Shown here: piece by piece, positions 14,666 to 50,265 of the stretch | How the letters are laid out: each line of letters begins with the position of its first letter | How positions within the stretch are numbered: position 1 is the stretch's first letter | Source: Vitellaria paradoxa | Lineage: Eukaryota; Streptophyta; Magnoliopsida; Ericales; Sapotaceae | Assembly: GCA_019916065.1 (NCBI GenBank) | Contig: CM034233.1 | Coordinates: forward strand, 50,921,947-50,985,946 | Direction of reading: 5' to 3' | DNA length: 64,000 nt | Notes under the pieces: generated by a model | The model's database searches: none | What the model saw: the letters and a program-made list of their open reading frames with translations, nothing else | What the model was told of the DNA's origin: nothing | Translations under genes and position numbers: made by a program

Positions 14666-14689
14666 AATTTCGGGGAAATACCTGACATT

Positions 14690-19831: not shown

Positions 19832-22800
19832 TTAAGATTGAGATCTTTCCCGCATTTTTGCTCTCGCGAAAAACACTCCTGCAACCAGACCTACCCACAC
19901 GCACACACCCAGAAAAAAAAAAAGGAAGTTGGAGCTTATGGTTACTTCGATATCTGGAAGAAAATAACCCAAGCATGAATACAGACCGGTATAGGAAAAC
20001 ATGGGAGAATGGCACTTATAGAAAATAAAATAAAATAAAAAATAATGCTGAAGCGAACACCAACAAAACAAATTGTATATACTTTATACAATTTTTATTA
20101 GTTATATATATATATATATATGAATACATTTTCTAAAAACCACCAAAACATTGAAAAAGGATATCAGTAATTCAATATTTTATTCCATAACATACAAAAT
20201 AAATAGATAAAGTAACAAAATATGAGTCAACCTTTGAGATTTTAGATAATCAATCTCAAGTGTGTCCCAAGTATGTATGGTGTATCTGATTTGCATCTTG
20301 GTGTGTCCAAGGAATATACATGTCCAATACGCATCGGATGTGGATATAATGCCCTATTTTGGTATATCCATGCTTCGTGAAAAATAACATACTAGAAAAA
20401 AATATAAAGGCTATGACTTGACAAAACAAGTGCTGCTTTAATTAGTTCAATTGTGCTAGCGGTCAAAGCAACCGGTCGCATTGGCAAAGCCTCACTTAAT
20501 ATGGGAATGTCAGCCACAAAAAAAAAAAAAAAATGGAGAAAACTTACCAAAGAATATGCTTGCGGAGTTCTCTAGACTTGTAGGGACGTTGAACAGAACA
20601 ATGCCAGCAACAGAGAGGGAATTTTATTTAGTGATCCCACAAGGCTACAGAAGAGGAAGGATTTGCCAAGAAACAAAATAAATCATTAGGTTATTGAACA
20701 GATTATTAAATTTGCAATTACTGTTAACAGATACAAGTTAAACTGAACCCAGACTGTTAAGGCACCGAAAGGAGACGTGCTAGAGCCTCAGATAAAAATT
20801 TGATTCTGTCTGAAAATATGGTTTAAATGTCAGCTTTGTATGTGAAATTAATTTGCTCGATCAGTTTGCATGAAGCCTTGACCAAACACAGCCAACCAGA
20901 AATTCATACTTTGTCAACCCAGAACTAGCGCAATTTCAAACAATCATTTGTGGCACAAGGATCTAATAACTGATTCATGATTAATATCACACCAAGTTGC
21001 ATGGCTTGAAAACAAACTGAAATATTCACGATATTAGATTCTTACAAAAATCTTGGCCTTACCTATATGTAGTGGCCCCTGTTTGATGAAGAAACCACAT
21101 GGAAGTGAAGCTAATAGCTAGACCCAAAAATCCACTCATTGTTATCACCAACCAAAAGATGGGCATCCCCAAAAGTGGTCTGTCATGTTTTGAAAAATGC
21201 ACAAGGGTCAATAAAACAAACAGAAGACTGATATATATAACTGAGCACCAGCTGTAGCTAATAAAATGAATAGATTCTGTTAGGGAAAAATGTTATAGCT
21301 GTGTTCCACAAAGACTGAAGATCTAAGAAGCACGGATACTTCTACAAAAGTGACATACTGGTGTCGTTTCATGTTGTATACCTACAATCACCCGATACTT
21401 AAGAGAGTGACATATTTATAACTTCTACGTATATAAAACATATTGTAGTTTTGAAAAAGAAAACTTGCAATCAAATGATAAAATAAAAATGATATGAATT
21501 ACATTTATTTTTTATTTTAGGAATTTTAAAATCTAAACTTTTGAATTTGTTGTAAATACGATCTTTTAAAATAGGTATGAATAAAAGACAAATGCATTTA
21601 TATTATAAAAATGAATTAAGTAGTAGTTTTTTCATATACATAGGTAAAATTATATATTTATTCATTAATGTGTCCCTACTGTGTTATAATTTGGTAATTT
21701 TAAAAATTGATGTGTTAGGGTATTCGTGTTGTGTCATACCCGTATTGCATGTCAGTATTTGTGCTTTATAGCTGAAGACAAACCTAAGTACAGCAGTACA
21801 TCGGAAACCCAAAAAAAAAAAAAAGTGATGCAGACCTATGTATGGGCATCAGGGGATGGGAAATGATGCAAATTAGAATAGAGAGATAAGAACTTGGAGG
21901 AAATATGTCATGTACAAAATGCTAGTTAGCCCCATGGTTTTAGAAGGAAAATTTTTTATATGGTCTTGAACGACAACAACTTAGGATTAGATAGTTTGCA
22001 TTTAAAGTTGAGGATAATTGATGCACAAACCTTACACTGGACTAATGCAGCTCAACAGAAATTTTTGTATATGATTGAAGGTCTCCTACCTTGTTTTGGA
22101 GTTAGGAATAGGAAACGATAACAATGTTTTTCGTAGGTTAAAAAGCGAAGGAATTGACGCTATTGCACCTAGGAGTCCACACTTGCAGGCACTACTGAGG
22201 TATTCCAACCACGTTCCAGACTATAAGGAGTCAACAGTTTGGAGAGCAGGAGTCAACACCTTGGACCAGCAGAGCCATGATCTAGTAGAGGAGCTTTAGA
22301 GACCAAGACTTGACACCTTTGTCTAGAAAGTCAAGTTTAAAGACTTAGCATTGAGGAGTCAAAGACTTAGAGGGCCGGATTTGACACCTTAGACCAGAAA
22401 AGATCTAAACCCAGTCATGGAGGAGTCGATACCTGAGTCCACCTTGAAGAGTAGCCCTGTTAAACGAACCAACAATTACACTAAAGATACCAAGATCCAA
22501 GCCCAGTACTAAAGGAGTTAACACCTGAAGAAGAAGAAGTCCACAACTAAGGATAAAGGACTGCCCAGAGAAATGTACTGCTTCAAGGAATGGACCAATG
22601 GGCTCAAGGTACACCTCTGTCAAGAAATCTGACATTAGAGGCAAGAAATCAGGTAAAGATTTTGGGGATCTTACAATAAATGATCAGCAACAAGAAGTTT
22701 GACAAAAATACTTTAAAAGAAGGTTTTGAACACCTTTGAGAATACGCAAAAGCACATCAATGAGCATTAATTACGATCATACAACAAAACCCTGGCAATT

Positions 22801-25800
22801 CCGCAATTTTGTGTTCTTCATTGTATTTATAACTTTTTAGGGAGATTTTTCACTATGAAAATTATAATTATACTTATTTATTATCTTTGACAACGGATAA
22901 ATACTCTTGTAAGGGTTGTATGCATTCTAGTACTCAATATGAGTTCAGTATTGAGTAATGATGGGAGAATTCTAATTATGTCAGATGGCAGGTCTCTTTC
23001 ATTTGAAGAGTTGGGAAGCTTCTCTGCTTCATATTTGTTTAGGTATGCCAATGATTGCTTCAAATGTGACTTTACAGGAGTGTACCAGTCAGTCAAGTAC
23101 AAAGATAGGAATTTTTTTTTTCTTTTTTTTTTTTGGGGGGGGGGGGTGTTGGATAATTAAGAAGAGGAAATTGTTTTGGGATGAACTGTATGATATGGCT
23201 TTCCAATGAGAGGATCCATGGTATATTGGTGAGGATTTCAATTAAGTGAGATTTATACAACGTTGGGGGGTGAGTCAGTTTTTAACTCTATGAGAAGTTT
23301 CCCTGACTTCATCAGATAGTTGGGATTAATTGATCTATATTATCAAGAGGCAGCTATACGAGGTCCAATTCATATAGCAGATCCAAAATTGCTAGGCTAC
23401 TAGTAATTTGCAACCTAGAAAGAACACTTTCCTGAGATGGTATAGTCCCTTTTGACTAGAATGACCTCATATCATTTCCCAATCTTGTTGAACTGTGAAA
23501 GCATAGTGACCCTTCCCTGTTCAGAGTCAGGTATGTTGCGAGTGGAAGGGTTCAATGAGATGATTCAAGAGTGGTGGAGTTAACAGGTCAATGGCAATCC
23601 AAGTTGTCTTTCTAGTTGAACTCCAGAGAATTAAAACAGACCTGTAAGAGTGGAATATAGAGCCTTTCAGCAAAATCAAAGCGCAAAAAGTCAAATCAAT
23701 GGATGAGCTTTCACAGATGGGACCATCGCAATGAGAACAGATCCATGTCAGAAGTTGATTTATTTTGAAGGGAGAAATAAACAGAATTGAGTTCGAAAGG
23801 TTAGCCAAAATATAGGTGTGCTGGCACCAAAAGTTATGGCTTAAAGACTAAATGGCTAGTGCTCACATATGCTTTAATCACATTGACAAGGAAATAATTG
23901 ATGGGAGAGTTTCTGAGAGGGAGGAGATATCATCGCTGAAGATAGTGACAGAGTGCCTAGTGCTCACAGGCGCTTTCAACACATTGACAAGGTATTAACT
24001 GATGGGATAGCTTTGGAGAGGGGAGGCATGGTGGATTTTTATTGAAAGCTCTTGTTGAGAAGGGAACAATAACGGCCTAGACATAATAACTTGGATCAAC
24101 CTACCATTTACAGCGCTAAAAATTTGACCTGGAATGTGACGTTTCTGAGGAGGAAGCAGGCCTTGCAGTATTGCATGGAGACAAGACCCTTGGTCCTTAT
24201 GGGATGACACTAGTCTTCTTAGTAGCTGGAATGTTTTAAAGAAATATATTATGCATGGTTTTAATGAATTTTATGTATATGGGAGATTTTAAAAAGCCTT
24301 AATGTGTTACTCATTACTTTAATCCCAAAAAAAAGAGTGCAGTGGATGTTTGAGATTTCAGGCCGATAATCCTAATAGGAAGTTTGTACATACTAATAGT
24401 CTCAGTGTTCGGTGATAAGATTGAAGCATGTTCTCAAAAGTGTAGTGTCTAAGACCCAAAACATTTGTCGAGGTTACCAAATCATTGACAATATTCTTGT
24501 GACGAATGAGGTGGTGGACACTAGATTAAAAAGTGGGGATCCTTGGGGTTATTTGCAAGATTGACGTGAAGAAAACCTATCATCATGTAAATTGGAATTT
24601 TTTATTGTACAGATTCGTGAGAATGGGTTTTGGAATTGTTAATGCAGAAATGTAATTAGCAAAAGGGTATATTTGTCTGCACAAATTTATTAGTATAACA
24701 CAACTTACACAACCCTATTCGGGTGTCAAGCCGTTCAGTACTTCCTTGTTCATTATATTGTATTAAAACAAAGATTAGAGATGTCAATAAGACAAGTACA
24801 AGAGAGTACTGGATACCCCACATGACCAAACACTTTAAAAAACCAATTGGGAAATGCCCTAATATGATTGGATGAGTTTGGGATTAAAATTTAATACTCG
24901 TGCCGAGTATGGGACGGGTTTGGGATTTATCCATAGAATACTCGATATCTGGTACTCGTTTATGTTTATACAGTGCCAACTAGATACCCGTTTAATATAA
25001 TATAGTATATTAGTATAAATTTAAATAATTACAATTTTGTCCCTAAAATAAAATAATTAAACTCTTAGACCTATGGTTATTTGATTGTGGATTATCATCA
25101 GGTGGTTCATATTTTAAAGTGATAGTTAAATGATTAGTTTTGTAAAGTCATTTGAATATACAAGTAATGATTCAAACCTATATACACTACTAGTAATTAC
25201 CTGTACCTAAAAGCACAAAAATATAATTTGGCGTGCAAATAACTTAAATTTATATTTATAAAGTAAATCTACATTAAAAATTGTAAAAATAACCTATAAC
25301 AATAAAAATCAGTAATCAAAAAAAACTAAGGTACCCATATAGCGTTTAATGAAGGTATAAAATTTTATTATTTATTACAAATATTATCACATTTTTTAAA
25401 TATTAATTTAAAAAATTTCATATAAAAAGTATTTCAAAAAAATATAGAAAAAGTGAGAGAGTATGTTTTCATATGAAATGACCGAAAAGACAATCTAATT
25501 AGAAAGAAAAAATAATCTTGACCATCGAGTAAATCCAACGGTTGAAAACATTTCAAGTTCAAAACTTTAAGTTTCCTTATTATATAGATGATGTATATAT
25601 TCAAAATTTAAGTTTTAAGCACATTAAAATTGAAATTTTAATTTAAACGTTTATTTTTTAATAAATTTTTTTAAAAAATTAAAATTTAAACATAATTTTT
25701 TTTTTTTAAATTTAGATAATTTTGTCTAATGAGTATTTATATATTGTTTAATAAATGTGTACAATTTTATTATTTATTACAAATATTATCACATTTTTTA

Positions 25801-28800
25801 AAATCTTAATTTAAAAACTTTTATATATAAGAGTATTAAAAAAATATGAGAAGAGTGAGGGATTATATTTTCATGTGAAGTGATCGAAAAGACAACAAAA
25901 GCGAAGAGAGAAAGAAGTAATCCTTACTATTGAATAAATCTAACGGTTAAAAATATACAAATGTTAAATCAATGAGCTATATTGTTATATAGATATATTT
26001 TGTAGTTTATTTGAATGAGATTTTTTTTTAATTTTTAGCTTAACATGAAGAATAATAAAAATCTTGATAGAAGAAAATCTATATGAAGGAGTTTGGAGTT
26101 GTAAAAGTTCGTATAAATTTGTACAAGTTGCAGTCTCGTAATTCGTGTAATGAGTAGAAATTTTGAATTTTATAAAAATTTGTAGAGATTTATTTATTTA
26201 TTTTGTAGAGCTCCAAACACACACCACAGATATTCACAAATATATTTACTGAGCATTACAAAAACACATCAACTGTTTTAAAAAATACAATTTCTAAACA
26301 GTTTTTAACAGATCTTTTTAAACGGGTATATAAGGTTGAAACGGGACGGGACGGGATAGGTTAGGTTTGGGACAGGATAGGTTTGAGTAAAATAAACGGA
26401 TTTAAGACGATAATAGGTAAGAAAAAATAAACAGGTTTAGTAATTGTAATGGCTAATTAGATGGATACCCGACCTGTTTATAGCCCTAACAGAGATCTAT
26501 CACCTCTGACCAATGCCCTACCACCTGAATAGGCGACCCTTTTCTTTTTATACATGCATAAATATTGTTTCCGAAATCAAAGAAAATTTTCTTCTATATT
26601 ACTATGCACGCTATACCTCCCCATTTATTATACAAAAGAACATCTATAGAAGGAAATTAAACCCCTACAAATTAGCTCCTAATATCTCCTAGACATAGAA
26701 ACATTTACTAATCTAATTCTACTTCCCAACAATAATTCAATTACAATCCCACAATCATTGGAATATCTACACTCCCCCTCAAGTTGAATCATAGATATTG
26801 ATCATATCCAACTTGCAAATAAAATCATCGAAATTTTGCCTTGGCAATTCTTTGGTGAAGATGTCAACAGCTTGTTCTTTTGTGGGAACATAAGTCATAT
26901 AAATAGTTTCATCTTCCACCTTTTCCTTGATAAAATGTCGGTCCACCTCTATAAGTTTAGTCCTGTCATGCTAAACTGGATTGAAAGAGATGTTAATGGC
27001 TGCCTTATTATCACAGTACAATTTGATAGGAAACTCCACCACGATCTGTAGTTCTCTCAAGAGTCTTCGAATCTACGGTCCTTTACACATTTCTTATGCA
27101 ACAGCTCTAAACTCAACTTCAACACTACTTGCCACAACATTTTGTTTTTTACTTCTCCATGTCACCAAATTTCCCCGTACAAAGGAGCAGCACCCAATGG
27201 TAGATATTCTTTCTTCTGTTGAATTTGCCCAATTAGCATCTGTGAAAATTTCTACTTCCTTGCTTTTCCCCCTTTTTAAACAATAGGCCCTTGCCTAGGG
27301 AGCCTTTGAGATAGCTAAGGATCTTCTATACAACCTCTAGGTGAGTTTCCTTCAGTAAGTGCATATGTTGGCTCACTACACTTACTGCAAAGGCAATATC
27401 AGGTCTAGTATGTGAAAAGTAAATTAGTCTACCTACTAACCTCTGATACCTTTCCCTGTCAACCAATTTTCCAACCTCTTTTGTTCTCTTCCCTGCTTCA
27501 ATAGGAGTCTCACTTGCTTTGCAACCAAGCATGCCAATTTTAGTCAGAAGATCAAGTACATACTTCCGCTAAGAAACACTGATGCCCTTCGTTGATTTGG
27601 TCACTTCCATTCCCAAAAAGCACTGCATCTGGCCGAGGTCCTTGACTTCAAACTTGTTGGCTAAGACCTCCTTCAATCTTTCTATCTCCACTTGATTATC
27701 ACCAATGAGAATAATATCATCGACATACACAATCAGAATTATCAACTTTCCATCTTTGGACTACTGAAAAAACATTGTATGATCTGACTATCCCTGTCGA
27801 TATCCTTGTTCTTTAACTACTTTTGCAAATTTGTCAAACCAAGCTCTTGGAGATTATTGGAGTCCATGCAAGGCCTTCTTAAGTTTGCAGGCTAGATTTT
27901 CTTCACCCTTTTTACAAAATCATGATGGCAACATCATGTAGACCTCTTCTTCTAGTTCTCCATTTAGAAAAGCATTCTTGATACCTAACTGTTGTAGTGG
28001 CCAATCCAAATTGGCTGCCAAAGACAATAGGACCCAGATGGTGTTAAGTTTTGCCACTAGTGCAAAGGTCTCCGTGTAGTCAATGCCATATGTTTGAATG
28101 AACCATTTTGCCACCAACCGGGCTTTGTATCACTCTATTGTGCCATCACTGTACTTCACTGTGAACACTCATTTGCATCGAACTGGTTTCTTCCCTCTCG
28201 GTAGATCCATCACTTCCCAAATCCCATTTTTCTCCAGTGCTCTCATTTCCTCCATTACTGTCTCCCTCCATTCACAAGTCTTCAAGGCTTCCTGAATATT
28301 CTTAGGAATTTTTATGCTATCAAGGTTACATGTAAAAGTACGACACCCTGTAGACAAAGCATTGTAAGATATAAACTTTGAAATAGGATGGAGAGTACAT
28401 AAACAGGGTTGTTTTCTAAGAGCAATGGGTAAATCAGAATCATCGGGTTTAGATGTGTTCAAGAGAGATTCTGTCATCAGATCTGAAGTTGAAGGAGACT
28501 TATGATTACTTAGATCTATCACTGGGTTCAATTCTGGTAGTGCTTTGAGTGGGGGTTCTCTCAAGACTTAGATTCCGACCTCCTTAAGTAAACCAACATC
28601 TCCTTATCACTTTGCTTTCTTGCATCTCCCCCTAAATTCAAGTGTCCTTCAATCCATGGCAGAGGAGAGGAAGTCAGTGTAGGATTAGAAGTAGTGTTTT
28701 GGATGGGAGGATCAAAAATCCACATCAAAGTCAAAAACCTGACCTTCACTGATATTCTCCCCCTAAAGTAGGGACCTTGAGTAGTAGGAAGTGTTTTCAA

Positions 28801-31800
28801 AGAAGGTAACATAAAGGCTGACAAAGATTTTTTTTGGTAGCTAGATAATAGCACTTATAACATTTCTGGGTAGGAGAATAGCCAATAAACACACACTAAA
28901 GGGCCCGAGGATCCAATTTAGTGCGATGATGAGCATGAACATGGACAAAAGCTATACAGCCGAAGACTCTGAGAGGAAGAGTAGAGCTCAGCCGAGTGGT
29001 AGGAAAGACTCTTGAAACTTTTGGAGAGGTGATGCAAATGATAGGACCTTATTGGCATTCTATCGATGAGATAAGTAGTTGTTAGGATGGCATCGCCCTA
29101 GAAGAGTTTGAGTATGTTGGTAGTGAAGAGTAAGGCTTGGGCAACTTTAAGAATATGTTTGTTCTTTCTTTCATGAACCCCATTTTGCTGCAGGGTATCA
29201 ACACAAGAGCTTTGGTGAATTATACTATGTCCTTGAAGATAGGTGCCCAATATAGGTTAAAATATCCATTGCCATTATCAGTTCGGAAGATTTGAACTTG
29301 TGTGTGGAATTGTGTTTGCATCATGGAATGGAAATTGATAAACATTGAACAAGCCTCAGTTTTGTCATGTAACAGGTAAACCCAACAAATACAAATATGA
29401 TCATCAATGAAAGTAACAAACCATTTTGTGTGGGTTCGGATAGGAGTGCAATACGGACCTCACAAATCACTGTGAATTATAGAAAATGGCATAAAAAGTT
29501 TATAAGTAGATGTGGGGAATGAAGTACGATGGTGTTCTGCAAATTCACAAGACTCACATTGAACATCAAAGGCCATTTTATTCAAGCAAATAGAAGGGAA
29601 CAGACGTGTCATACATTGAAAGTTTGAATAACCTGGTTTAGAATGCCATAACAAAAATTCACTAGCTTTAGATGCTGGACACAAGCCCCTCTTATTATCT
29701 TCTACAAAATAGTAGAGACCCTCACACTCCTTAACACTGCCAATCGTCTTCCCCGATGATAGGTCCTAAAATACACAATGAGAGGGAAGAAATTTAGCAG
29801 AGCAATTAGAGTCTTTTGTCAACTTGTGATATGGATGCTTTTGTTGGAAAAACGTATCAAAGGAGAAAAAAGGGGGTGGTTAACAGCTGAAAGGGAGGAG
29901 AGAAATCAGGGTGGAACAACTGAAATGGAGGAGAAAAATCAGGATGATTAACAGCTGAAAGGGAGGAGAAAATCAGGGTAATTAACAGCTGAAAGGGACG
30001 AAAAATCAGGGTAATTAACAGCTGAAAGGAAGGAGGAAAAATAGGAGAATTTGATTAGAAAAATTACTGGCTAAGGAGCAGTTAATTTTTTTTTTTTTCT
30101 TTGATAGTTTCTTTCCTGATTTTATGTTATTTCTTTCCTATTAGAGTCCCACCCTAATAGGAGACCTAATTAGGGTGGAGTTGTTATTTCTTTCCTTGAT
30201 TAACACTTATGTATTCTACCTATATAATGGCAACTTTATCAATGAATAAAGCAGGCAATCAGATTATCAAAATTTAGAGTTTTTTTTTTTTTTTTTTGGC
30301 TGTAAATTTTCAGCTAGCTCTATCAAGAGCTAGCTAACCCTTTCTCGACATAGGTTCTTCCTCCAAAAGAAAGAACACCAATAGGGAAGAGAGGTGGACT
30401 TCCCTCTTAATCGTCCATTGACGAGATCATACGCTAGGGCCATCATCAACTTGGTATCAGAGCCGGTCACCATGGACGATACCAATAATTCCATTCCAGA
30501 GCTGACAACCCTTTATCAACATGCAAACCAATGTTTTATGGAGATAGAAGAAAAGTTTGATGGCCTGATTCAGATGATGGAAAGGCTTGGCCAGGAGAGG
30601 AGCAAGGAAGGGCTGAGAGGGGCAGAAAGCAACAATAGGGCAGTGCCATCTAGGGGAGAAGAAGGAGATGAAGGAAGATCAGGATCCCATACAGTGCCAC
30701 ATTATTCCAAGATGGAATTTCCTACGTATGATGGCTATAAAGATCCATTGGTGTGGCTCTATAGATGTGAGCAATTTTTTTTTTGGCTCAAAAAAAGCTA
30801 GAAGAGGAGAAGGTGAGACTGGCGGCTTTCCACTTGATTGGGCAAGCACAATTGTGTGCTACTTTCAATTTGCACAAGAGAAGCCAGTCCTACATTGGGG
30901 AATGTTTAAGAAGCATTGCAACTTGCGGTTTGGTCCCCATTTGAACCACAATCCAGTTGGGGAGCTAACAAATTTGAAACAAACAAGGAGTGTAGAGGAA
31001 TATCAAAACCAATTTCAAATTTTGTTAGCAAGGACAATGGGCCTTCCCAAAGATCTTCAGGTAAATCTATTTACAGCTAGCCTTGTTGATGGACTAAGAA
31101 TTGATGTTAAAATACAAAATCCTATAAATTTGGGGGCTGCCATGAACTTGGCAAGAGCATATGAGAGGAAGATGAAATTTACACAAGGTGTGGGAAGCAA
31201 GAAAACCACCGCCTCATGGAATTCTTGGAGGCCGCCGAGCTATTTTTCTACACCAGCCGCCTCCCAAGGGAGTAAGGGGAGTTTGGACAACAAGGGATCA
31301 GCTGCAAGTTCCGATAGTGTGGGAACACCTGATATAAGGAGGCTTACCCGAGCTGAGATGGCTGTAAAAAGGGAGAAAGGCCTATGTTACAACTGTGATG
31401 AGTTGTATACAGCATGACATAGGTGCAAAAGGCTATGTTGGATAGAGGTAGTGCAAGAAGAAGAAGAAACAAAGGAGGAAGAGGAGACCGACAAGCCAGA
31501 AATTTCACTACATGCCATGACGGAAACAAATAGCACTCAAACCATGCAAGTCAAAGCTAAAATTGATGAATGGCCCCTGTTGGTACTATTAGATTCGGAA
31601 GTACTCATAATTTCATAAGAGATAAGGCAGTTCAGCAGCTTGGGCTAGTTGTGAAGGGACAACAAGGGCTGAATGTGCCAGTAGCCCATGGAGCAAATAT
31701 ACCAAGCCAAGGGATGTGCAAAGGGGTAACCTTTAAGGTTAATGATGAATTATTTTGTCCCGATCTTTATGTTATACCTTTGGCGAGATTTGATGTAGTT

Positions 31801-34800
31801 GTAGGGGTTAAATTGTTGCAAACACTATGCCCTATAGTATGGGATTTTTGCACTTACTAGGAGTTTTAATGTGGAGGGGAGGAGCTTTCAGTGGCAGGGA
31901 TAAGTACAACAAATCAAGCCGAGACTGCATATGGTGCAAGGGCAATAGCTAGAGCAAGTTGAATTGCACCAACTTCTGAAGGAAAATTCTGTCTTGTTTC
32001 AAGAACCAACCGGCCTCCCTCCTATTAAGAATTGTGACCATCAAATCACTCTTATTCCAAGGACAGGACCAGTGGTAGTAAGACCGTATAGGTATTATTT
32101 TTTACAGAAAGAGAAGATTGAAAGACAATGTGATGAGATGCTAAAACAAAGGATCATCCAACCCAGTAGATCCCCGTTTTCCTCACCTGTATTGCTGGTT
32201 CGAAAGAAAGAAAGAACGTGGAGATTTTATGTAGACTATCATGCCTTGAATGATCAAACAGTGAAAGACAAATTTCCTATTCTGATGGTGGATGAACTAT
32301 TATATGAATTACATGGAGCGAAGTTTTTCACTAAGTTGAATTTGAGGTCAGGTTACCACCAGATACGAATGGATAAAGAGGATGTGGAGAAGACCACATT
32401 TAGAACTCATCATGGTCACTTTGAATTCTTGGTTATGCCTTTCGGGTTGGACCAATGCTCCATCGACTTTTCAAACCCTAATGAAATAGGTATTTCATTC
32501 TTATCTCAGGCGATTCATTTTGGTTTTCTTTGACAACATTTTGATCTATAGTAGGACATGAGAGGAACATATGTAGCATATTCGAGTAGTTTTTAATTCA
32601 CTACTTTCTCACCACTTATTTTTGAAGAGATCAAAGTGTTCACGATAGGGACTTTGATAACCGTTTCCGATTCAAATATTTTAGGCGGGGACGAAATTTG
32701 AATTGGATGGGTTAAGTTTGAAGGGCAGTATTTTAGGGATTTGATTTATTTGTTTTCCATAAAATATTTTGGTATGTGATTTATTTGCTTTCCATAAAAT
32801 TCGAGATTTGATTGATTTATTTTTGGATATTACTTCATGTGGTCTTTAACCTTAGCCTATATAAAGGGTTACAGATTGTAAGGAATCGGCAGTTTTTGAA
32901 TGATATTGAAATAATTTCCGTTTTACTTTCGCATTGTTTACTTTTATTTTATTATTGTATTCTTGCCTCCACAGTGCTACATCAAGTGGTATCAGAGCCG
33001 AAAGATCCTACAGCTCTCAATATCCGTCAGAAATCCACTCTTCCAAAGAACCCTAGTTTTCATCACCGTGCCCACCCAAATAACCTAAGCTGTCGTACAC
33101 CGTTATTGCAACAGATTCAGTGCTAGATTTTAAACAGCAGTCGCGACAGCAGTTACCACAGCCGCCGCCGTTGCTCTACGCATCCTCAAACCCTTCGAGT
33201 ACGTTTTCGTGCGTTTTACCAATATTTAATTCCGGCGAACCCCACCATTGGCACCACCTGCCTCCGGTGACTCCAACGACCTCCTGCGATTTTTTCGGCA
33301 ACCGACTGGCGACTTCCGACAACTTTTCTGACAACCTTCGGCGAAGTTCAGAATAACCACCACACTCCAGTGATTTGATCTATGCTCCGGCGACCTCCAA
33401 CGAAACTCCAGCGGCTTTTCGGAAAACCTCCGGCAACCCTAGAACAGTTTGTGCTTCGCAATGGTATGTGTCCTCTACTCCAAACTGTGATTACATATTC
33501 TGTTTGGTTAGGAAATATATTAAATTCGCATTTCGGCCTCTCTTTGACCTACATTGAATTTCTTTCTTGAGAGGTTACTGAGAGCCACCATTTCCCATAC
33601 CCCTATTATCCTAAATTTGAACACAATCATACTCGTCATTTCCATTACTTGCGTATTTGTGACATTTTACTTTGACCTAGCATAATCTTTAATTACTTGT
33701 CTCAATTTGAGTTAACATTAGAATCAAATTTCTATCTCACCCTCCCTTGCCAAAAAAAAAAAAAAAAAAATCAGTATCCATCTCCTTCCCTTTCATACTA
33801 TACCTCATATTCATTCATCAAACCCTTCTACCATGTAACAAAAAGTCTCTATCCTAGAATAAAACATGAACACACTACAGGATTCAATGAACCAACTCCG
33901 TAAGGACTTTGATAAATTAGCTAGAGCGTTAGGCAAACGTTAGGCGGATGATCAGAGGGGCGACATCCCTATTGCTCCCAAGCAGACGTTAGACCCTTCC
34001 CATAGTTCCATCGGTTCTGTTGGATTTTATTTAGGCAGTCACAGCCAAATGCAACTTCCTCAAGGTCCTCATGGGAGAGATATTGAGGATGATGCAAACT
34101 CTGTTTTAGGTTATGGTAATAGATTATCTCCCGTTGATTGTGTCACAAATCATAAACCGCATAGGGATAACTATAGGATTCGACCACCTGTGCAATACCC
34201 TAGAAACCACCAAGATGAGTTTAACAACATAGTCAAGGCTGTTAAAATTAAAGTTCCATCCTTTGATGGACAACTAGATCCCGATGTCTTTTCTGATTGG
34301 CTTCTTGAGATTGAGGATTACTTTAGGTTGTATCGTATGTCCGACTTGCATCAAGTCATATTTGCCCAAATGAAGTTAGTTGGTTCTGCCAAGTGGTATT
34401 GGCAGTGTGTTCAGATTGAGAGAGAGCGATTTGGGGCCCCACCCATTTATTGCTAGGTTGACATGAAAGTTGAATTGCAAAAGAAGTACCTTCCTACCTA
34501 CCATAGAGACCAACTGAACGATCAATTAATGAATTTAAGGCAAGCAACTCTTAGTGTCACTGAGTACATGTCTAGTTTTGAGTGCCTTTTTATAAGATGT
34601 GACATTAGGGAAGAGTCTTGGCGAACAGTGGGTAGATTTATTAATGGGTTACGCCCTGAACCCAAAAGAGAAGTAAGTTTGTTTTCTCCCGACTCTTTGG
34701 AGGACGCCTTTCACAAGGCTTTATCCATTGAACACCTGTATAAACTCTCCACCCCTAGATGGATGACTTCTCAATCCCAACAATCTAAGTCATTCTCTTC

Positions 34801-37800
34801 TCAGAAACCGAGTGGGAGTTTACAAGCTGGTACAGTTACTTCACAGGGAAGTAACAATCCTAACTTGGGAAATCAGGGTAGACACACTACTGAGCCTAAT
34901 TTTTCTGGGTTTCGCCCTGGTGCTTCAAATATCCAATGTCATAACTGTCATAAGAGGGGACACATTACTGCACAGTGTTCACAGCGAGCACTTGTACTCA
35001 GCCAGGGTCTAAATTCGTCCCCTGAGTATGAGTTTGAACAAGTAGATGGTTTTGACCCCGAGGATGGGTGCGAGGAACACGAGGCTGAAGATGAATTACA
35101 TCTTGGTGTCATGCGGTGTATCTTATCAACCCCTATGAAGGCAGAAGATTGGAAGCACACTAGCATATTCCAGACTTTCCTTAAGTGTGGAACTAAGGTT
35201 TGTAAGATTGTCATAAATGGGGGAAGTACCATGAACGTAGTATCCACTCGTGCACTTAAGAGGATTGGACTTACACCAGAGCCACACCCACACCCACATC
35301 CCTTTCGAGTAGCTTGGGTAGACTCTACTAGTCTATCTGTCACCCACAGATGTTTAGTCCCTCTTCAGATGGGAAGTTACTATAACAAAGTGTGGTGTGA
35401 TGTTCTTCCTATGGACATTGTGCATGTGTTACTTGGTCGTCCGTGGCTCTATGATATGGACGTGATACATCATGGACGATCTAACACTTATACTTTTCAA
35501 CAACAAGGTAAGACCATCCAATTGAACCCTGTTAAACCAAGGGAACACAACATTGAGTCTCCACTTAAGTCGGGTTCCCAGGCTAAGCCTATTTCACTGC
35601 CTCCTACTCCAAAGAACCACACCATCCAATTGTTGACTTGGAAAGAATTTGAGAAAATTGGAACAGAATGTGGATTTGTATTAGCTTTAGTGGTTGAGAA
35701 TGTTTTTCATGTTCAATCTACAAATGCTGAAGCTCTTGACCCTACACTAGCTCAGTTACTTGAACAGTTTAAGGATGTGAAACCTACAAACCTTCCCAAG
35801 GGGCTTCCTCCTATGCAGGACATTCAACATGCTATAGACTTCGTACCTAGATCCCAGTTACCTAATTTACCTTACCATAGGATGAATCCTAGTGAGTGTG
35901 CTGAGTTACAAAAGCAAGTAGGAGAACTTTTACAAAGGGGTGCTATTCGAGAGAGTCTTAGTCCTTGTGTTGTGCCTGCATTACTGACTCCTAAGAAAGA
36001 TGGGTCATGGAGAATGTGCATTGATCGTAGAGCCATTAATAAGATCACTGTCAAGTACAGGTTTCCTATTCCTCGCCTTGAGGATATGCCAGACATTTTA
36101 ACTGGTTCCCTTTGGTTTTCCAAGATAGATCTTCGTAGTGGCTACCATCAGATTCATATTAGATCAGGCGATGAGTGGAAAACTACCTTTAAGACTCCCG
36201 ATGGCTTGTATGAATGGCTAGTAATGCCATTTGGATTGTCCAACGCTCCTAGTACCTTTATGGGAGTCATGACTCAGGTCCTACGCCCTTTCTTAGGAAA
36301 ATTTTTGGTGGTATACTTTGATGATATATTTATCTATAGTAAAACCAAGAAAGACCACTTAGATCACCTTCGGCAAGTCTTTGAGATTTTGCGGGCTGAG
36401 CTACTTTATGCCAATCTCAACAAAGTGTTCGTTCATGCGGTCTCAGGTGTCTTTCCTTGGGTTCATTATATCTGATCAAGGAATTGCAGCAGACCCCAAG
36501 AAAGTTAGTGCTATCCTTGAGTGGCCTGAACCTAAGCCTCTCTTAGAGGTTCGTAGTTTTCATGGACTCGCCACATTCTATCGAAGATTCGTTAAAGATT
36601 TTGGATCTATTATGGCTCCCATCACAGACTGCATGAAAAAGGAGAGTTTCCAATGGACCACAACTGCCACTAGGGCATTTGAGGAAATCAGGAAGAGAAT
36701 GGTAGAGACTCCTGTTTTGAGACATCCTGACATTTTCAAAGTCTTTGAGGTTGCTTGTGATGCCTCTGGGGTAGGTATAGGGGGTGTCTTGAGTCAGGAG
36801 GGTCGGCCAATAGCATATTTCAGTGAAAAGGTTAATGAATCTAGGAAGTGTTAGTCTACATATGATAAAGAGCTGTTTGCTGTTGTCCAAGCCTTATGGC
36901 ATTAGCGATATTACTTGTTACCACAAGAGTTAGTGCTATACTCTGATCATCAGGCCTTAAAATACCTTCATTCACAAAAGAAATTGAGTAATAAGCATGC
37001 TTTATGGGTAGAATTTCTTCAAGAATATACATTTGTTCTCAATCACCGCGTAGGTGTAGAGAATAAGGTCGCTGATGCATTGAGTAGGGTTGCTCTCACT
37101 TTACAGTCTATGAGTGTTCGTGTCATAGGGTTTGATAGGCTCAAAGACGAATACCCGACCTGTCCCGATTTTGGCCTAATCTTTCAAGACGTCCAAGCAG
37201 GTAACCGTCGTGAACTAGTTGATTTTCTTATTCGAGATGGTTACTTGTTTCATGGGTCCAAGTTGTGCATTCCTCGTACTTCTATTCGCGACTATTTAGT
37301 TTGGGAGTCACATGCAAGGGGATTAGCTAGCCATTTTGGCAGGGATAAGACTATCGCTTTAGTCGAAGATCGATTTTATTGGCCATCCTTAAAAAAAGAT
37401 GTGGCTAGAATTGTTTCTCAATGTCGTACGTGTTAAGTCGCAAAGGCTAAAAAACAAAACTCTGGGTTATACACCCCCTTACCTATTCCACATGCACTAT
37501 GGCAGGATGTTAGTATAGACTTTGTTCTTGGATTACCTAGGACTACTAGAGGTCATGATTCTATTATGGTAGTAGTCGACCGATTTTTTAAGATGGCCCA
37601 CTTTATACCTTGCACCAAAACAACTGATGCTTCTCACGTGGCTAAGTTATTTTTTAGAGAGGTTGTCAAACTGCATGGCCTACCCACTTCCATAGTGTCA
37701 GACAGGGATGTTAAGTTTATGAGTTACTTTTGGAAGACTCTATGGAGACTGTTTGGTACCCATTTGAAATTTTCCTCTGCATTTCATCCCTAGACCGATG

Positions 37801-40800
37801 GTTAGACTGAGGTAGTTAATCGAAGTTTAGGAGACCTGCTGAGGTGGCTAGTTGGGGAACGTCAGGGAACTTGGGATTTGTTACTCCCTACAGCTGAATT
37901 TGCCTATAATAGCTCTATCAATCGTTCCACTGATAAGAGTCCTTTTGAGTGTGTTCATGATATTACCCCTCGCCAACCTATTGACCTTATTCCCTTACCT
38001 TCTGATAGCCGGCCATCCCAATCAGCTAAAATCTTTGCCCAACACATTAATGATATTTATGCTAATGTTAGACGGAAAATTACTACTAGTAATTTAGATT
38101 ATAAACTAGCTGCTGATGTACATCGTCGTAATGTTGCATTTAATGAAAGGGACCATGTTATGGTTCGTATTCGCCCAGAGCATTACCCTAAACATTCTTT
38201 CAAAAAATTGCATGCACGTGCCATTGGACCTTTTCGTATCCATACCAAATTGGGCCCTAATGCTTATTTAATTGATTTACCTACTGATATGAGTATTAGT
38301 CCAGTTTTAAACGTAGAGGACTTGTTACCTTATTGAGGCACATTCGAGCCTCCAGTTTTTCCTTCTAGTACTTCTGCAGGTCCTTCTAGTACTTCTGCAG
38401 GTCCTTCTGGTGGCACTTCTATTCCTTCACCGGTCCCAGCCCTACCCCCTCTTCAGCAGCTCGAGGTAGAGCAGATCACTGATGTGCTTGATTTTGAGAC
38501 CATTATTTCTCCTCAGGGGTGCCTTCAGCATTTTCTTGTCCGGTGGAAGCATAAACCAGACTCCGATGCTACTTGGATTACTGAGGAGGAGTTCCACCGC
38601 ATTGATCCAGAGCTCTTGGCACATTATCTTCACCAGCACTCTGCGGAGCAGAGTTCTTTTCAACCCGGAAGGAATGATGAGGACTTTGATAACCGTTTCC
38701 AATTCAAATATTTTAGGTAGGGAAGAAATTTGAATTGGATGGGTTAAGTTTGAAGAGCAATATTTTGGGGATTTGATTTATTTGTTTTCCATAAAATATT
38801 TTGGGATGTGATTTATTTACTTTCCATAAAATTCGAGATTTGATTGATTTATTTTTGGATATTACTTCATGTGGTATTTAACCCTAGCCTATATAAAGGG
38901 TTAGAGATTGTAAGGGATCAACAGTTTTTGAATGATATTGAAATAATTTCCGTTTTACTTTCGCATTGTTTACTTTTATTTTATTATTATGTTCTTGCCT
39001 CCGCAGTGCCACATCAGTTCATTTGAAGAAACCCAGGTGGCATATTTGGGACATATAATCCATGGTGCAAGTGTGTCCGCCGATGCTAGTAAGATCCAAG
39101 CAATGGTGGATTGGCCTACCCCTCACTCAGTTAAAGCTGTAAGGGGGTTTCTGGGATTAGCAGGATACTACAGGAATTTATTCGAGATTATTGACAGATA
39201 GCAACTCCCCTCACAAGCTTGTTGACAAAGAATTCCTTTAATTGGAATGAGGAAGCCGAGACAGCCTTCAACAATTTGAAGGAGGCTTTAGCAATTGCTC
39301 CAGTTCTACAACTACCAAATTTTGAGGAGGAGTTTGTGGTGGAGTGTGACGCTTCAAGATGCAGGATTGGAGCAGTACTCCAACAACAAGGCCATCCAAT
39401 CGCTTTCTTTAGCCGCAAGTTAGCCCCCCGCCACTTCAAACTTGCAACATACGAAGGAGAGCTAATAGGCCTTGCTAAAGCCATCTCACATTGGAGACCA
39501 TACCTACGGGGGAGGGCGTTCCTGATTAGGACTGATCATTACAGTTTTAAATTTCTCCTAAACCAAAGGCTAACAACTTCTCCCCAACAACATTGGATGA
39601 GTAAATTGCTTGGTTACAGCCAAAAATCACATTATTTGAAGCAATTAAGGAGGAGGTTGCCAATGTAAAAGAATTGCAACACCTATATCAGTGGGTTGCA
39701 GAAGGCAAAGAGGGGGCCGATTGGAGAGTGAATGATGGCTTGATTTTCTACACTGACCGGGTGTATTTACTGCCCACTTCACCTCTAATTCAAATGGTCC
39801 TAAGTCATTTTCACAATATGGCACATGAAAGGATACAAAAGACATTAGAGAGAGTGAAGGGAGACTTCTTTTGGAAAGGGATTTTAGGAGCGGTGAAGGA
39901 TTTTGTGCAGAAGTGTTTGGTATGTCAACAAAATAAATGGGACAACCTTCACCAGCAAGTCTACTTCAGGCCCTACAAGTCCCAAGTAGTGTCTGGGCAA
40001 ATATTTCCATGGATTTCATAAATGGACTTCCAAAAGTGGGACGTAAATTTGTCTTATTAGTGGTGGTGGATAGATTCTTAAAATATACTCACTTTATGCC
40101 CCTCACTCATCCTTATTTTGCTATTAATGTGGCTCATGCAATCTTTGAAGGCATCTTTCGCCTACATGGTCTCCCTGAATCTATTGTATCTAATAGGGAT
40201 TCAGTTTTTACTATCTTATTTTGGAAGGAGCTTTTCCGTTTGAGCAGTACCAAATTGGCCTTATCTTCTACTTATCACCCTCAGACTGATGGACAAACTG
40301 AGGTGGTCAACAGAATAATTGAAATGTATTTGCGGTGTTTTGTAGGGGATAGGCCAAAATCTTGGGTGAATTGGTTATCATGGGCGGAATACTGTTATAA
40401 TACTTCTTACCATTCTTCACTTCATACTACTCCTTTTAAAGTGGTTTATGGTAGGGAGCCACCCCCCCTGTTGTCTTATGTGTAAGGAAGCACTAGCGTC
40501 GATGCAGTCGACCAAGTATTGAAGGAGCGAGATGAATTTTGAGCTGAAATCAGGTTGCGCTTAGTGCAAGCACAACAAAGAATGAAGCATTTTCATGATA
40601 CTAAGAGGAGGGAGTTGTCTTTTGAATCAGGAACTTGGGTGTGGCTGAAGCTCCAACCCTACCACCAGCAGAGTGTTGCAAAACACAAGTTTCACAAGCT
40701 TGCTCCTGAATTTTATAGACCTTTCAAGATTCTGGAGAAAATAGAAGTTGTCGCCTATCGCTTGGAATTGCCCCCGGAGAGTCGTATTCATGATGTCTTC

Positions 40801-43800
40801 CATATCTCCTTGTTAAAGGAATTCAAGGGTACTCCTCCCACCTCTATTCCTTCTTTACCATCAATCAAGGAAGGCAAAATTATGCCTAATCCACAACAGC
40901 TTGTGAAGTCACGATGAAACAGGGGCCGAAGGGAGTTATTGATTCAGTGGGCAGGTTCCTCAGTTGAAGATGCAACTTGGGAGGAATTAGAGGACTTTAA
41001 ACAAGCTTATCCAGAGTTCGAGCTTGAGAGCAAGCTCGATGTCGGGGAGGGGAGTGATGATATGGATGCTTTTGTTGGAAAAACGTATCAAAGGAGAAAA
41101 AAGAAAGTGGTTAATGGTTGAAAGGGAGGAGAGAAATCAAGGTGGAACAGCTGAAAGGGAGGAGAAAATCAGGGTAATTAACAGCTAAAAAGGACAAAAA
41201 ATCAGGGTAATTAACAGCTGAAAGGAAGGAGGAAAATTAGGAGAATTTGATTAGGAAAATTGCTGGCATAAGGAGCAGTTAATTTTTTTTTTTTTTAAGT
41301 TTCTTTCCTGATTTTATGTTATTTCTTTCCTATTAGAGTCCCACCCTAATAGGAGACCTAATTAGGGTGGAGTTGTTATTTCTTTCCTTGATTAACACTT
41401 ATGGATTCTACCTATATAATGGCAACTTTATCAATGAATAAAATAGGCAATAAGATTATCAAAATTTAGAGTTTTTTTTTTAGCTCTAAATTTTCGGCTG
41501 GCTCTATCAAGAGCTAGCTAACCCTTTCTCGACATAGATTCTTCCTCCAAAAGAAAGAACACCAATAGGGAAGAGAGGTGGACTTCCCTCTTAATTGTCC
41601 GTTGAGGAGATCATACGCTAGGGCCCTTATCAACTTGCTAATGAACAATAAATTACAAGATAATTTTTGGACATGAAGAACAGATTCCAGGGTAATAGAA
41701 TCTGAGATATGAATACTCCCTTTCCAGCTACTAAAGAGAGTGACCCATCTGCAATTTTAACTTTTGAATGGCCAGCACATGGTGAATATGATGAGGAATA
41801 AGTGATAAGCTTCATTCGTATGGTCCGAATCCCCATAATCAATAACCCAACAAACATTAGTCCGAAAAGCAGTACTAAATGCTTGTGAAAAATTACCTCG
41901 TTGAGCTAAAGAGTTTGAAAGAACACTGGTGAATTGACTCGATGCTTAGAAGCTAGAGAAGAGTTCATAGAGTTTTTCTAACTAGTTGGGATTGAAGCCA
42001 CCACTAGTAGCAGACTGGGTGCTCTTCTCCCCTTGAATTTTCTCGGCCTGGTAATCCACAATAGGCTGATATCCCTGGGTTTTGGTGTTCTGTCTAGACT
42101 TCCAATCAACTAGCTTCCCATGTAGCTCCAAACAGGTGTCCTTGGTGTAACCTGATTTTTTGCAATGCTCACACCTGGGACACCTTTTTTTGTTGCCTTG
42201 AACCAACCTTGGAGGTGTAATGTGAGTCATTATGCTAACATTTCAAAACCAGAAGAAGTGTCTCATTTAACATCACCTTCCTTCTATTTTCTTCTTGCCT
42301 AACCTTTGAAAAAACTTCCCGAATTGATGGCAAAGGGCATCGGCCAAGAATCCTTTCACGAACATCATCCGAGTCAAAATTGAGGCCAGCAAGAAACTCA
42401 AATACCCTTTCATTCTCAAGTTTCTTTTTGTATCGGACACTATCAGCCGAGCACTCCCATTCTTCTTCACAACTCAGGTCGAGTTCCTACCAAAGAAACA
42501 TCATCTTCATATAGTAGTCAGGCACCTCTCTCTCTCCTTGCTTCATCTGCCATAGTCGGGTCTTGATTTCAAATATTTGGGAAGAGTTCTCAGCATCTGA
42601 GTAGGTCTCACAGACTGCTTCTTAAACATCCTTTACTGTAGGTAGGAACAGATACATCTTCCCAATGGATTGGTTCATGGAATTCATTAACCACAAAGTC
42701 ACCAATGAATTTTCCGACCTCCATCACTGGTAGGCAGCAGCATCAAAGGAAGGAGGTTGCTTCGTCTCACCAGTAAGATACCCTAACTTACCTTTGCCGT
42801 CATTGACAACCTTAATGATCTGAGCCCACTCGCAAAAATTCTTTCCATTCAACTTCTTGACAAGGAGTTAAACGGAGGAGTTATCCACTGGGCCCGTGGA
42901 GAAGCTGACTTTTGTTTTGCCCTCAGACAACTCAGTCGCCATGGATAGCTCGGTTTTAGACAAACCCTAGGGTTTTGATGACTGATGATGAAACAAGCGA
43001 TTTTGCGTTAGCAACGATTGACGATCAATGAAGCAAAACCAAGGCCGACAATCAATGATCAACAATCGACGATGAATAACTGTTTGCGATTAGCAATTTC
43101 ACCGAAGGTCAGGCTTTGTCAACTGAAGGTGCAGCGATTGGTGATGTATGATTGGCTGGACGGGACAGGCAGGACCGATTGTTGGACGGGATTAAGAATG
43201 ACTCAGTGATTAGGATTGATTCAGCGAATCAAACGAAGACTGACTTAGTGAATCAAACAAGAATGACTCATTAAGGCATCTGTGATGAGGCTGACTCAGT
43301 GAGTCGCCTACTCTAATACTATGAAATCAGAGAAAATTTTCTCCTAGATTACTATGCATGCTATACCTCCCGATTTATAATACAAGAGAACATCCGTAGA
43401 AAGAATTAAACCCCTACAAATCAGCTCCTAACATCTACTATAAATAGAAACGTTTCCTAATCTAATTCTACTTCCCAATAATAATTCAATTACAATCCCG
43501 CAATCACTGGAATATCTACAGTTTCCCTATCATTGTTAGCATCTATGTTACAGGTTAGGTTCATTGACATCATATGATTTGAAACTCACATCAAATAATA
43601 CATTAGAAACCCTTGATGAAACAAAAAATAAAATAAAATAATTGTCATGCAAAATAACAATAATTTCAGGAGACTTCGATGCATCAGCTTAATTTTCCAA
43701 CTACTAAACAATGAGAATATAAAAGAAAGAATAAAACTCACGTTTGAGAAAGATAATCCACCTCATTGAATACAAAAATAAGTAGAATTCCCAAAGGCAA

Positions 43801-46800
43801 TGAGATTGTGTTATTGAGTAAAACCATTGAAAACTCATTCAAGTTTCCAGATTTCGTAACTTGCTTTGCTGTATCCATGACCCTACGCAAGGTTAGCTGC
43901 ACCACAAAGGTTTAAAGATAAACAATCCTTCAGCTAAAAAATTTAACATCGACAATTAAAATAGATGAGGCAAAGGAATGTGAGAAAGCACTACCCATCC
44001 AAAAACTAGAGAAACTAACATTTAACGACTTAATAAACTACCCAGAAGAAAGTAACTCAACCAGATATATTGCAGCTAACATCATTCTATGAAGCAGAAT
44101 AACATATAGCAAACCAGTGCAGTGATTGAGGTGAATATTCAAAGAGAAAAACTTAATTACATCGATGTGCAAATTTTATGAAATAGGCTTAGAATTGAGC
44201 TGAATATACAAATTCGCATAGCAATAAAAAGCATATGGACGAAAAGCCATTACATCTGCTTAAACCTAGCAGCCAATTAAGTATCTCAAACCTCTTTGAA
44301 CCTGTTGACATAATTACTGTTGCTAAACTAACTGACCTTATTTACTCACTCAGAAAAACATACCTAAAGAAACAACTGACAATAACACTGAAAGCTTTCT
44401 AAAACATTTCTTCTTTGTGAGAGGAAAAACAATGCATGATATATATTTTTATTTGGAAACCAGAACATAAATAAGAGACATTTAATAAATACTACTTTAA
44501 TAATGACATTATACCAGTTGACATAAGTTGTAGTTGTATTGTTGGAAAAAAAAAAAAAAAAGGGTTTTCAAACATTCAACGTCAAACTCCAAGGGAAAAG
44601 TGATGGTATAACTGCATAATATAGACAAGGTGGTTAGACATTGCAGGGCAATGGCGTTTTTAGAATTTTTTTTAAAATATTGCAGTTAAACTGCTGTGAA
44701 AAGCAATTGACCAGGAATAGTATCTTCAGAAGGAGAAATAGGAAGACAAAAAACAAAATGAAAAATTAAAAATGAAAAGGATTGTTGAGACCCGTGATCA
44801 GATCCTCTGGAACAGTTCCCTGCTCAGCAATCAACCAAGAGAAATCATTCATTAATCTCTTTCCCTTGCATCACTTTTTGACTAGCCTGCTGACTCTCCA
44901 AAAGTTCCTTCTGTTTGCTGGCTGGTTTATTCCCAGCAACCTCTATTAAATCCCAACTTACTCAATTTGACAATATGTATATATTTGTAAGGAAATCACT
45001 AGACACTGAATTTCCTACAGGAAATGACATCTCCCACTCAACCATGAGGGGTTGACTGAAACAACAAACAAAACAATGAAACAAACAAATAAAGAGACCA
45101 ATGAAAACGGGAAAACAAAAGTCAAAAGCTATCATGTATGGTACAGTATCGAAGGAAGAGGAGGATAACAATAAATGAAGCAATACTCACAGAATATGAT
45201 GCTGTCAAGAAACAATTAATAATCTGCCATGTGTACCCAACAGCATGAAAAGAAATATCCGTAATTCCTCCAGAGATTGCAGATATAATCTGCACAACAG
45301 CAGAAATGCAACCCCTCTTCAAACTTCATGAATAAACCTTCCCCAAATATTCACACACGAAAAAATAAATAACAAAATTTAAATAATATATTGTAGATGG
45401 ATAAGCATACATAGAGCTTCAGAAGTAAAATGTGGATAAGCTTTAAAAAAGTGAAATAATGCTAAAGAACTACACAAAGAAGTAAAAAAAGTATTTATAC
45501 AAGCAACAAGATGTGTAAAAATATATCTGCTCAAGACATATAAAGCCATTGTACTGGCATTCAAAATAAAGATATTGCATTAAGCATAAGCCACATAGCA
45601 CCCACCAAGAAGTTCTAGCCACAGAGCATCTAAGTTCCCACCAAAGCCAGATTGTAAACCTTACGTAAATAGCCCAGGTAACCTAAGCCTTAGTTATTAA
45701 AGAATTTACTTCCTTGGTCATCCTATCAGAGAGGAAGATGAGAAAACATTTTATTATTTCTCAGAATTAATTATGACTTACATATAAAGCACATAACAAA
45801 GAAAAAGAAAAAAATAAATTTAAAGCTATTAGATAGAAGAAATGTTACATTACTAATGCAAGCACCAAGCTCAATAACTGACAGGAGAGTAAAATATTGA
45901 TCATATCCATTTAAAGTCCCAAAGAATTGGGGAAAATAATCCGAATCCCAAAAGAAGTCTTCATCATTCAACATACCATTAAGAATAAAGCAGCCCACAC
46001 TCTACTGTCGTGGTGCTTATTGAACAAATATATTTCACCAACTGCAGTTATCACATTCGTAACGTTCTTCAAGATTGTGACCATAGCGACATTAATATAC
46101 TTCAGACTGCAAACAATACAGATCATAATTAACTCACACACTGAAAATGAGAGTATTTCTATTTTCAACTGACTAATTAAGGCGAAAATGAGTTGGCTCA
46201 ATAAGCACAATACTTCAACAATTCACAAATTATAACTGGTCTTGCAGCCTCTACTAGAGATGAATCCCAGCATCACAGAAAAAACTTCCAAAGAAAAAGA
46301 AGCCAAAATTCATAATTCATCAGTTAAGATAACATATATCCACGTGAGATAAAAACGATAACATTGTTCCATAAAACAGCCCAAAATTATTCAAGCCACA
46401 TGAAATTTGGAATGTAGATATCCAAATATGACAACTATATCTGTTTAGTTAGCTTGATATATATTGTTGGGCTCACTCCTAATAACTTAGGATTTTGAGA
46501 TAGCAAGTCACTTTACATACCTCCTAGGAAGTCCTAGGCTACCTCCTAGGAAGTCCTACATTCAAGTCTTGTTATCTGCATTTGCCCCCCATGTAATGAC
46601 CCGAATTTTAATATATTATATTTTATTAGTTTCCGTATTATTTTATTCGATTAATCTAGCGCTGTAACTAATTAATTGTCCATTTGGAAATTTATAATTT
46701 TATTTATCTTGTTGTCGGGTAAATTGTCTAAATTTTAGGGTCTTGTATGTAATTTTCGCAAAATCCTAAGCCTATTATTAGATTACTATATATACATAGA

Positions 46801-49971: not shown

Positions 49972-50127
49972 TGCAAAAGTCACCTATGCATAAACAATTT
50001 CAAAATCATTAACTTTGGTAGTCAGAGTTCAAAACTGCATTGTAGTATGCCGGCTCAATATATTAGAGAATGAAAAATATATAAATTCGAAAGCCACATA
50101 CAATAAAATGTTATTAGATTTAAAAAT

Positions 50128-50265
50128 GTTACAGAATGAAATACAATATGCAAGGCAAGATAGCAAGGCTTGGTTGGGCATTTTAACTATCTTGTTACTT
50201 CATATTGTCTTCTTGGGGTCCTTTTTCAATTCACCACCTTCTACATCAATACCATCATTATTAAG
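50128..50265 (-). pseudogene. Diverged duplicate of GONST1 coding exon 1
   Basis: A segment about 165 bp upstream of the real exon copies 49825-49963 over roughly 138 bp with clear similarity. On the minus strand it reads GIDVEGGELKKDPKKTI, then TGA, then SNKIVKMPNQALLSCLAYCI. The real exon has [19 protein letters not shown] and [15 protein letters not shown]. The in-frame stop and the lack of matching sequence beyond these borders make it a dead pseudo-exon in the 5' intron. Confidence 0.88.

What the first reader, a model, noticed from the sequence alone, without database searches (positions are those of the whole stretch)
26572..43520. Three LTR retrotransposons nested inside one another, every insertion site resolved
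A copia element (TSD GTTTC) was hit in its gag-pre-integrase region by chromovirus B (TSD ACTTG), which was hit in its reverse transcriptase by chromovirus C (TSD GTTCA). Host reading frames resume exactly across both inner insertions. By-eye LTR divergence (copia about 10%, B about 5%, C about 6%) agrees with copia being oldest; B and C are near-contemporary. This is a clean relative clock within a single gene intron.
Basis: partly seen in the sequence, partly recalled or inferred. Interest (0 to 1): 0.75.

Follow-up and report, generated by a model that had tools for sequence, protein, structure and literature searches.

The report
Three jumping genes nested in intron
Three virus-like jumping genes inserted one inside another within one intron of a plant sugar-transporter gene; the nest is real and its order is certain, but such nests are common in plants and the divergence clock is too coarse to date the two inner ones apart.

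Summary
The nest is real and correctly delimited. A Ty1/copia element A (26572-43520, minus strand, TSD GTTTC) is split by Ty3/gypsy element B (29827-41632, TSD ACTTG), itself split by chromovirus C (32643-39016, TSD GTTCA). Relatives elsewhere in the genome that lack the insert have contiguous flanks with the duplication once (B's site: 5 of 5 places fetched; C's site: 5 of 6 close places, the sixth stops short of the site). The host is a GONST1-type gene; the nest fills 75% of a 22.6-kb intron that spans about 0.1 kb in a paralogue. Two qualifications. (1) The clock is coarse: K2P is A 0.115, B 0.053, C 0.068. C must be younger than B but measures nominally older (Fisher p 0.38); within the nest only A>B is nominally significant. 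This inversion occurs in about a quarter of published plant nests. (2) The region occurs twice in the assembly, 769 kb apart, with 12 substitutions but 210 small indels over about 54.6 kb, the second copy ending at a 100-N gap: most likely a false duplication. Both copies carry all six junctions. An ordinary, well-resolved example of a known kind.

The parts
26567..26571 (.). TSD GTTTC of A, left copy (right copy 43521-43525)
   Evidence: sequence
26572..26771 (-). A (Ty1/copia) 3' LTR, 200 bp; a polypurine tract lies next to it on the minus strand, read by eye
26772..29826 (-). A internal region, 3' part; gag_pre-integrs match at about 29538-29720 (in ORF 29463-29765), then decayed integrase, RT and RNase H by eye
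29822..29826 (.). TSD ACTTG of B, left copy (right copy 41633-41637)
29827..30448 (+). B 5' LTR, 622 bp, with a 33-bp minisatellite
30449..32642 (+). B internal region, 5' part: PBS-like start by eye, gag (Retrotrans_gag), RT (RVT_1) up to the C insertion
32638..32642 (.). TSD GTTCA of C, left copy (right copy 39017-39021)
32643..32984 (+). C 5' LTR, 342 bp
32985..38674 (+). C internal region: Retrotrans_gag, RVT_1, RT_RNaseH, Integrase_H2C2, SH3_Tf2-1, Chromo (the last ORF runs into the 3' LTR)
38675..39016 (+). C 3' LTR, 342 bp
39017..41057 (+). B internal region, 3' part: RNase H, Integrase_H2C2, SH3_Tf2-1, Chromo (below Pfam's cut-off)
41058..41632 (+). B 3' LTR, 575 bp
41633..43321 (-). 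A internal region, 5' part, with the right copy of B's TSD; its end next to B gives a weak Pol_BBD match (E 0.008, below cut-off)
43322..43520 (-). A 5' LTR, 199 bp
43742..43896 (-). host gene exon 5 (GONST1-like)
21063..21179 (-). host gene exon 6; the intron 21180-43741 (22,562 bp) holds the nest
49753..49971 (-). host gene exon 1 as modelled from an ATG (exons 2-4: 49474-49613, 45977-46106, 45191-45289)
19832..20648 (-). host gene last two exons, about 20546-20648 (frame broken in this copy, open in the second copy) and about 19832-19890; ends read by eye

Best explanation
Three successive integrase-mediated insertions of LTR retrotransposons into one intron of a plant GONST1-type gene. First a copia element A in the gene's sense direction; then Ty3/gypsy element B (probably a chromovirus) into A's coding region, antisense to the gene; then chromovirus C into B at the end of its RT domain, also antisense. 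Each left a 5-bp target duplication. Insertion order and the two inner target sites are shown; the mechanism follows from established knowledge of LTR elements; dates, and any effect on the gene, are inference. The intron is inferred to have grown from a short one to 22.6 kb; the two exons that flank it keep splice sites and open frames. The second near-identical copy in the assembly is most likely the same locus assembled twice.
For: LTR pairs and TSDs. Uninterrupted relatives at both inner sites with the duplication once. Domains. Host gene identity and exon junctions. A paralogue with 108 bp between the same two exon matches. A's LTR distance highest. All six junctions in both assembly copies.
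Against: C measures nominally older than B (0.068 against 0.053), opposite to the nesting order, though within sampling error. A's own empty site in the intron was not tested: the second assembly copy carries A too, and no related species is held. About 5.6 kb of the intron outside the nest was not explained. Host exon 7 has a broken frame in the window copy, open in the second copy. B's chromodomain match is below Pfam's cut-off.
Confidence: 0.96

Rival explanations
1. The nest is an assembly chimera: contigs of different repeat copies were joined and the nesting never existed.
For: The region appears twice in the assembly and shows error-like indels.
Against: Matching 5-bp duplications at all three levels and exact register in relatives at the inner two are not expected from misjoins, and both assembled copies agree on each 40-base junction string.
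Confidence: 0.02
2. The LTR distances date the three insertions reliably, with B and C near-contemporary.
For: The confidence limits of B (0.034-0.074) and C (0.042-0.099) overlap broadly, and A is highest.
Against: A versus C is not significant and B versus C is inverted. B has a 106-base identical run reached by 323 of 5000 shuffles, so conversion between its LTRs is possible but not shown. Conversion and inversion are reported for about a quarter of plant LTR pairs and nested elements (PMC7251063, abstract).
Confidence: 0.2
3. The second copy 769 kb away is a genuine, very recent segmental duplication of the GONST1-like locus with its nest.
For: Both copies lie on one contig in the same orientation and are nearly free of substitutions over about 54.6 kb.
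Against: 210 indels of at most 5 bp against 12 substitutions, with the direction of the indels switching along the segment; in window 1-4000 the relation is reversed (67 substitutions, 11 indels). The second copy stops at a 100-N gap. Exon 7 is broken in one copy only.
Confidence: 0.07

Closest known systems
Nested LTR retrotransposons of plants (Jedlicka et al. 2019, PMC6911290; abstract and passages seen)
   Same: Ty3/gypsy elements over-represented among nested ones. The paper lists the region separating RT and RNase H among the places most often hit, which is about where C sits in B, and mentions multiple-level nesting.
   Different: Nothing in kind; here three levels are resolved inside one intron. 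The paper's main text does not use the word 'intron' (0 occurrences).
Nested elements with inverted LTR divergence (Jedlicka et al. 2020, PMC7251063; abstract and passages seen)
   Different: Here the inversion is not significant.
TE-expanded introns of grapevine (Jiang and Goertzen 2011, PMC3058033; abstract seen)
   Same: TEs, recent LTR retrotransposons in particular, make up most of expanded introns in a woody dicot.
   Different: That is a survey; this is one gene, with the order of insertion resolved.
GONST1 GDP-mannose transporter (PMC7980081; start of abstract seen in a search listing)
   Same: The modelled protein is 77-90% identical to the 120 proteins listed; the solved relatives are GDP-mannose transporters (9s35, 5oge).
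   Different: The intron after exon 5 is 22.6 kb here.

Membership tests
LTR retrotransposon (each of A, B, C) | two direct LTRs, TG...CA ends | tested here: met
   the left ends of A and C read CG on the plus strand where their right LTR copies read TG
LTR retrotransposon (each of A, B, C) | target site duplication | tested here: met
   5 bp for all three; site without the insert seen in relatives for B and C, not for A
Ty1/copia (A) | gag_pre-integrs domain; integrase before RT | tested here: met
   gag_pre-integrs 33.4 bits, cut-off 28.4; Pol_BBD E 0.008, below its cut-off. The order integrase before RT was read by eye only
Ty3/gypsy (B, C) | RT and RNase H before integrase | tested here: met
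   order of RVT_1, RT_RNaseH, Integrase_H2C2, SH3_Tf2-1
Chromovirus (C) | chromodomain after the integrase | tested here: met
   PF00385 27.9 bits, cut-off 25.1
Chromovirus (B) | chromodomain after the integrase | tested here: inconclusive
   PF00385 E 0.00033 but 20.9 bits, below the cut-off 25.1; right place and direction
Chromovirus lineage (Reina, Tekay, CRM, Galadriel) | lineage-specific RT and integrase phylogeny | not tested
   no lineage library used
GONST1-type GDP-mannose transporter (host gene) | sequence similarity over the protein | tested here: met
   77-90% identity over 97-100% of the query among the 120 listed of 977 proteins; AG/GT junctions for the five modelled introns
GONST1-type GDP-mannose transporter (host gene) | transport of GDP-mannose | not testable with these tools
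   needs an assay

The most novel reading that the evidence does not exclude
The locus is genuinely present twice, 769 kb apart: a very recent segmental duplication carried the whole gene with its three-level nest, so that one nest became two dated by shared insertions.
Probability: 0.07. Interest if true: 0.3.

Novelty: new member of a known kind. Interest (0 to 1): 0.15.

Why it matters
It is a clear three-level nest in which insertion order, target sites and host intron are resolved, and it shows why nesting rather than LTR distance should be used for order. It also flags a probable false duplication in this assembly that would double-count a gene and three retroelements.

Tried and rejected
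Rejected: that ACTTG at B's right end belongs to B rather than to the target. B's internal region also begins ACTTG, but the three close copia relatives have ACTTG at that place without B, and the two B relatives with both ends read have other duplications: GAATT, and GAGAG within a simple AG repeat, where the length is ambiguous. Of the four B relatives fetched the other two gave only one end each at the predicted places (C8 right, C9 left), so their duplications are unknown.

Rejected: that assembly errors distort the LTR distances. None of the 12 substitutions between the assembly copies lies in an LTR of A, B or C.

Led nowhere: Rfam gave no match at the gathering threshold; 5 of the 10 ORFs that lie outside the LTR elements gave no Pfam domain. 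The lineage of B and C, the species and the empty site of A were not resolved. The named proteins most like the host gene come from Actinidia (89-90%), then Davidia, Bertholletia (88%), a hint only. Literature listings were seen; from them only PMC3058033 was opened (abstract), besides PMC7251063, which was already opened.

Full report
What is there. Self-comparison of the window gives LTR pairs for A (26572-26771 / 43322-43520), B (29827-30448 / 41058-41632) and C (32643-32984 / 38675-39016). A lies on the minus strand, B and C on the plus strand. Lengths without inserts and without the extra TSD are 5138, 5427 and 6374 bp.

Are the inner insertions real? On each side of the C insertion, B's RT frame reads up to and on from the TSD without a shift, and A's frame does the same at the B insertion; both were read by eye. 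The better test uses relatives in the same genome. For C's site, 493 bases of B gave 42 scored matches, 40 besides the window and its second copy; only 40 of 160 candidates of the first look were scored, so the list is a lower bound. Loci were fetched for 23 of these 40. Six loci (5 places, about 88-92% identical) have both flanks contiguous with an overlap of exactly 5 bp; 3 more distant loci fit the same register; 14 do not carry both flanks to the site, among them two loci of one close place on C6 (90-92%) whose match stops 73 bases short. For B's site, 457 bases of A gave 45 matches, 43 besides the window and its copy (40 of 182 candidates scored). I fetched 5 of the 43, chosen because their match reached the site or nearly so; in 5 of 5 the flanks are contiguous, with ACTTG once in the three close ones and the same register in the two distant ones.

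Domains. B: Retrotrans_gag, RVT_1, RT_RNaseH, Integrase_H2C2, SH3_Tf2-1, and a chromodomain below Pfam's cut-off. C: the same set with a chromodomain above the cut-off. A: gag_pre-integrs. B's insertion lies 106 bp upstream of the gag_pre-integrs match, at the end of a weak Pol_BBD match, so 'in its gag-pre-integrase region' is slightly off. C's insertion lies at the end of the RT domain: in C's own RT the Pfam match ends at about the homologous place (homology by eye). Jedlicka et al. 2019 name the region separating RT and RNase H among those most often hit by nested elements (PMC6911290, passages).

The intron. Six exons of a minus-strand gene with AG/GT junctions join to a 286-residue protein. 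The 120 proteins listed of 977 found are 77-90% identical over 97-100% of it; many are named GDP-mannose transporter or GONST1, others sugar phosphate transporter domain-containing, hypothetical or unnamed. The two solved relatives are GDP-mannose transporters. Exons 5 (43742-43896) and 6 (21063-21179) enclose an intron of 22,562 bp; the nest is 16,949 bp, 75% of it. Besides the window and its second copy, each exon has one further match in the genome at E up to 0.001, both on C12 (68 and 72% identical), with 108 bp between the two matches, part of which is unmatched exon end.

The clock. K2P with bootstrap limits: A 0.115 (0.069-0.172), B 0.053 (0.034-0.074), C 0.068 (0.042-0.099) (an earlier run with B's ends a few bases off gave 0.054 for B). 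Fisher tests: A-B p 0.011, A-C p 0.10, B-C p 0.38, uncorrected for multiple tests. C must be younger than B, yet measures older; with equal ages a difference this large in this direction would arise in 19% of simulations. B's longest identical run, 106 bases, is reached in 323 of 5000 shuffles, so conversion between its LTRs is possible but not shown. About one fourth of nested elements in a study of fifteen plants (4126 pairs) are more diverged than the element that they hit (PMC7251063, abstract and passages). At a rate of 1.3e-8 per site per year (recalled, from grasses; not for this species) the distances give roughly 4.4, 2.0 and 2.6 million years.

A second copy. Window 6749-61347 matches C1:50159999-50214544, the continuation of a match from C1:50156832, about 769 kb away in the same orientation. 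Over that stretch there are 12 substitutions and 210 indels, none longer than 5 bp, mostly extra bases in the second copy up to about 24 kb and mostly missing bases after 32 kb; in window 1-4000 the counts are 67 substitutions and 11 indels. Further left the identity is 93-99% out to the end of what I fetched. The second copy ends at a 100-N gap. Exon 7 of the host gene has a broken frame in the window and an open one in the second copy. This is the pattern of one locus assembled twice with leftover read errors, next to a stretch of allelic divergence. All six junctions occur in both copies, which supports the nest if the two were assembled independently, which I could not check.

Verdict. The nest is confirmed, its order is certain, its place in an intron is confirmed, and its clock is coarse. 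Nesting is common in plant LTR retrotransposons (PMC6911290, abstract); interest is low.

Noticed in passing
window 6749-61347 and G000:C1:50159999-50214544: Second copy of most of the window 769 kb away with 12 substitutions but 210 small indels, ending at a 100-N gap: probable false duplication in the assembly.
   Followed up: yes
window 6062-18204: A fourth LTR retrotransposon (about 906-bp LTRs, K2P about 0.055, TSD GTACC, minus strand) with RT_RNaseH plus a second RNase H (RVT_3), which recalls the Tat lineage (recalled, not tested), and an opposite-strand ORF at 9163-9609 with weak coiled-coil matches.
   Followed up: partly
window 10848-11460: 147-bp tandem array, about 4 copies, inside that fourth element.
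   Followed up: no
window 29827-30448 and 41058-41632: B's LTRs carry a 33-bp minisatellite; the left LTR is 47 bp longer than the right, mostly from one 35-bp gap in the array.
   Followed up: partly
window 30449-30453: B's target duplication ACTTG equals the first five bases of B's internal region; the two relatives with both ends read have other duplications, so probably coincidence.
   Followed up: partly
window 49823-49957 and 50126-50260: Partial tandem duplication of GONST1-like exon 1, 86.7% identical.
   Followed up: no
window 20546-20648: Host exon 7 frame broken in the window copy, open in the second copy: likely a residual sequencing error.
   Followed up: yes
window 25337-25589, 25739-25994, 63719-63974: A repeat of about 255 bp in three copies, one inverted, 78-88% identical.
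   Followed up: no
G000:C11:29170299-29175925: A copia relative of A is split by about 5.1 kb some 95 bases from the site where B hit A (query bases 361-364 of 457): another nest or insertion.
   Followed up: no
window 1020-1673 and 3610-4002: Polygalacturonase-like (GH28) and PsaN coding stretches at the left end.
   Followed up: no
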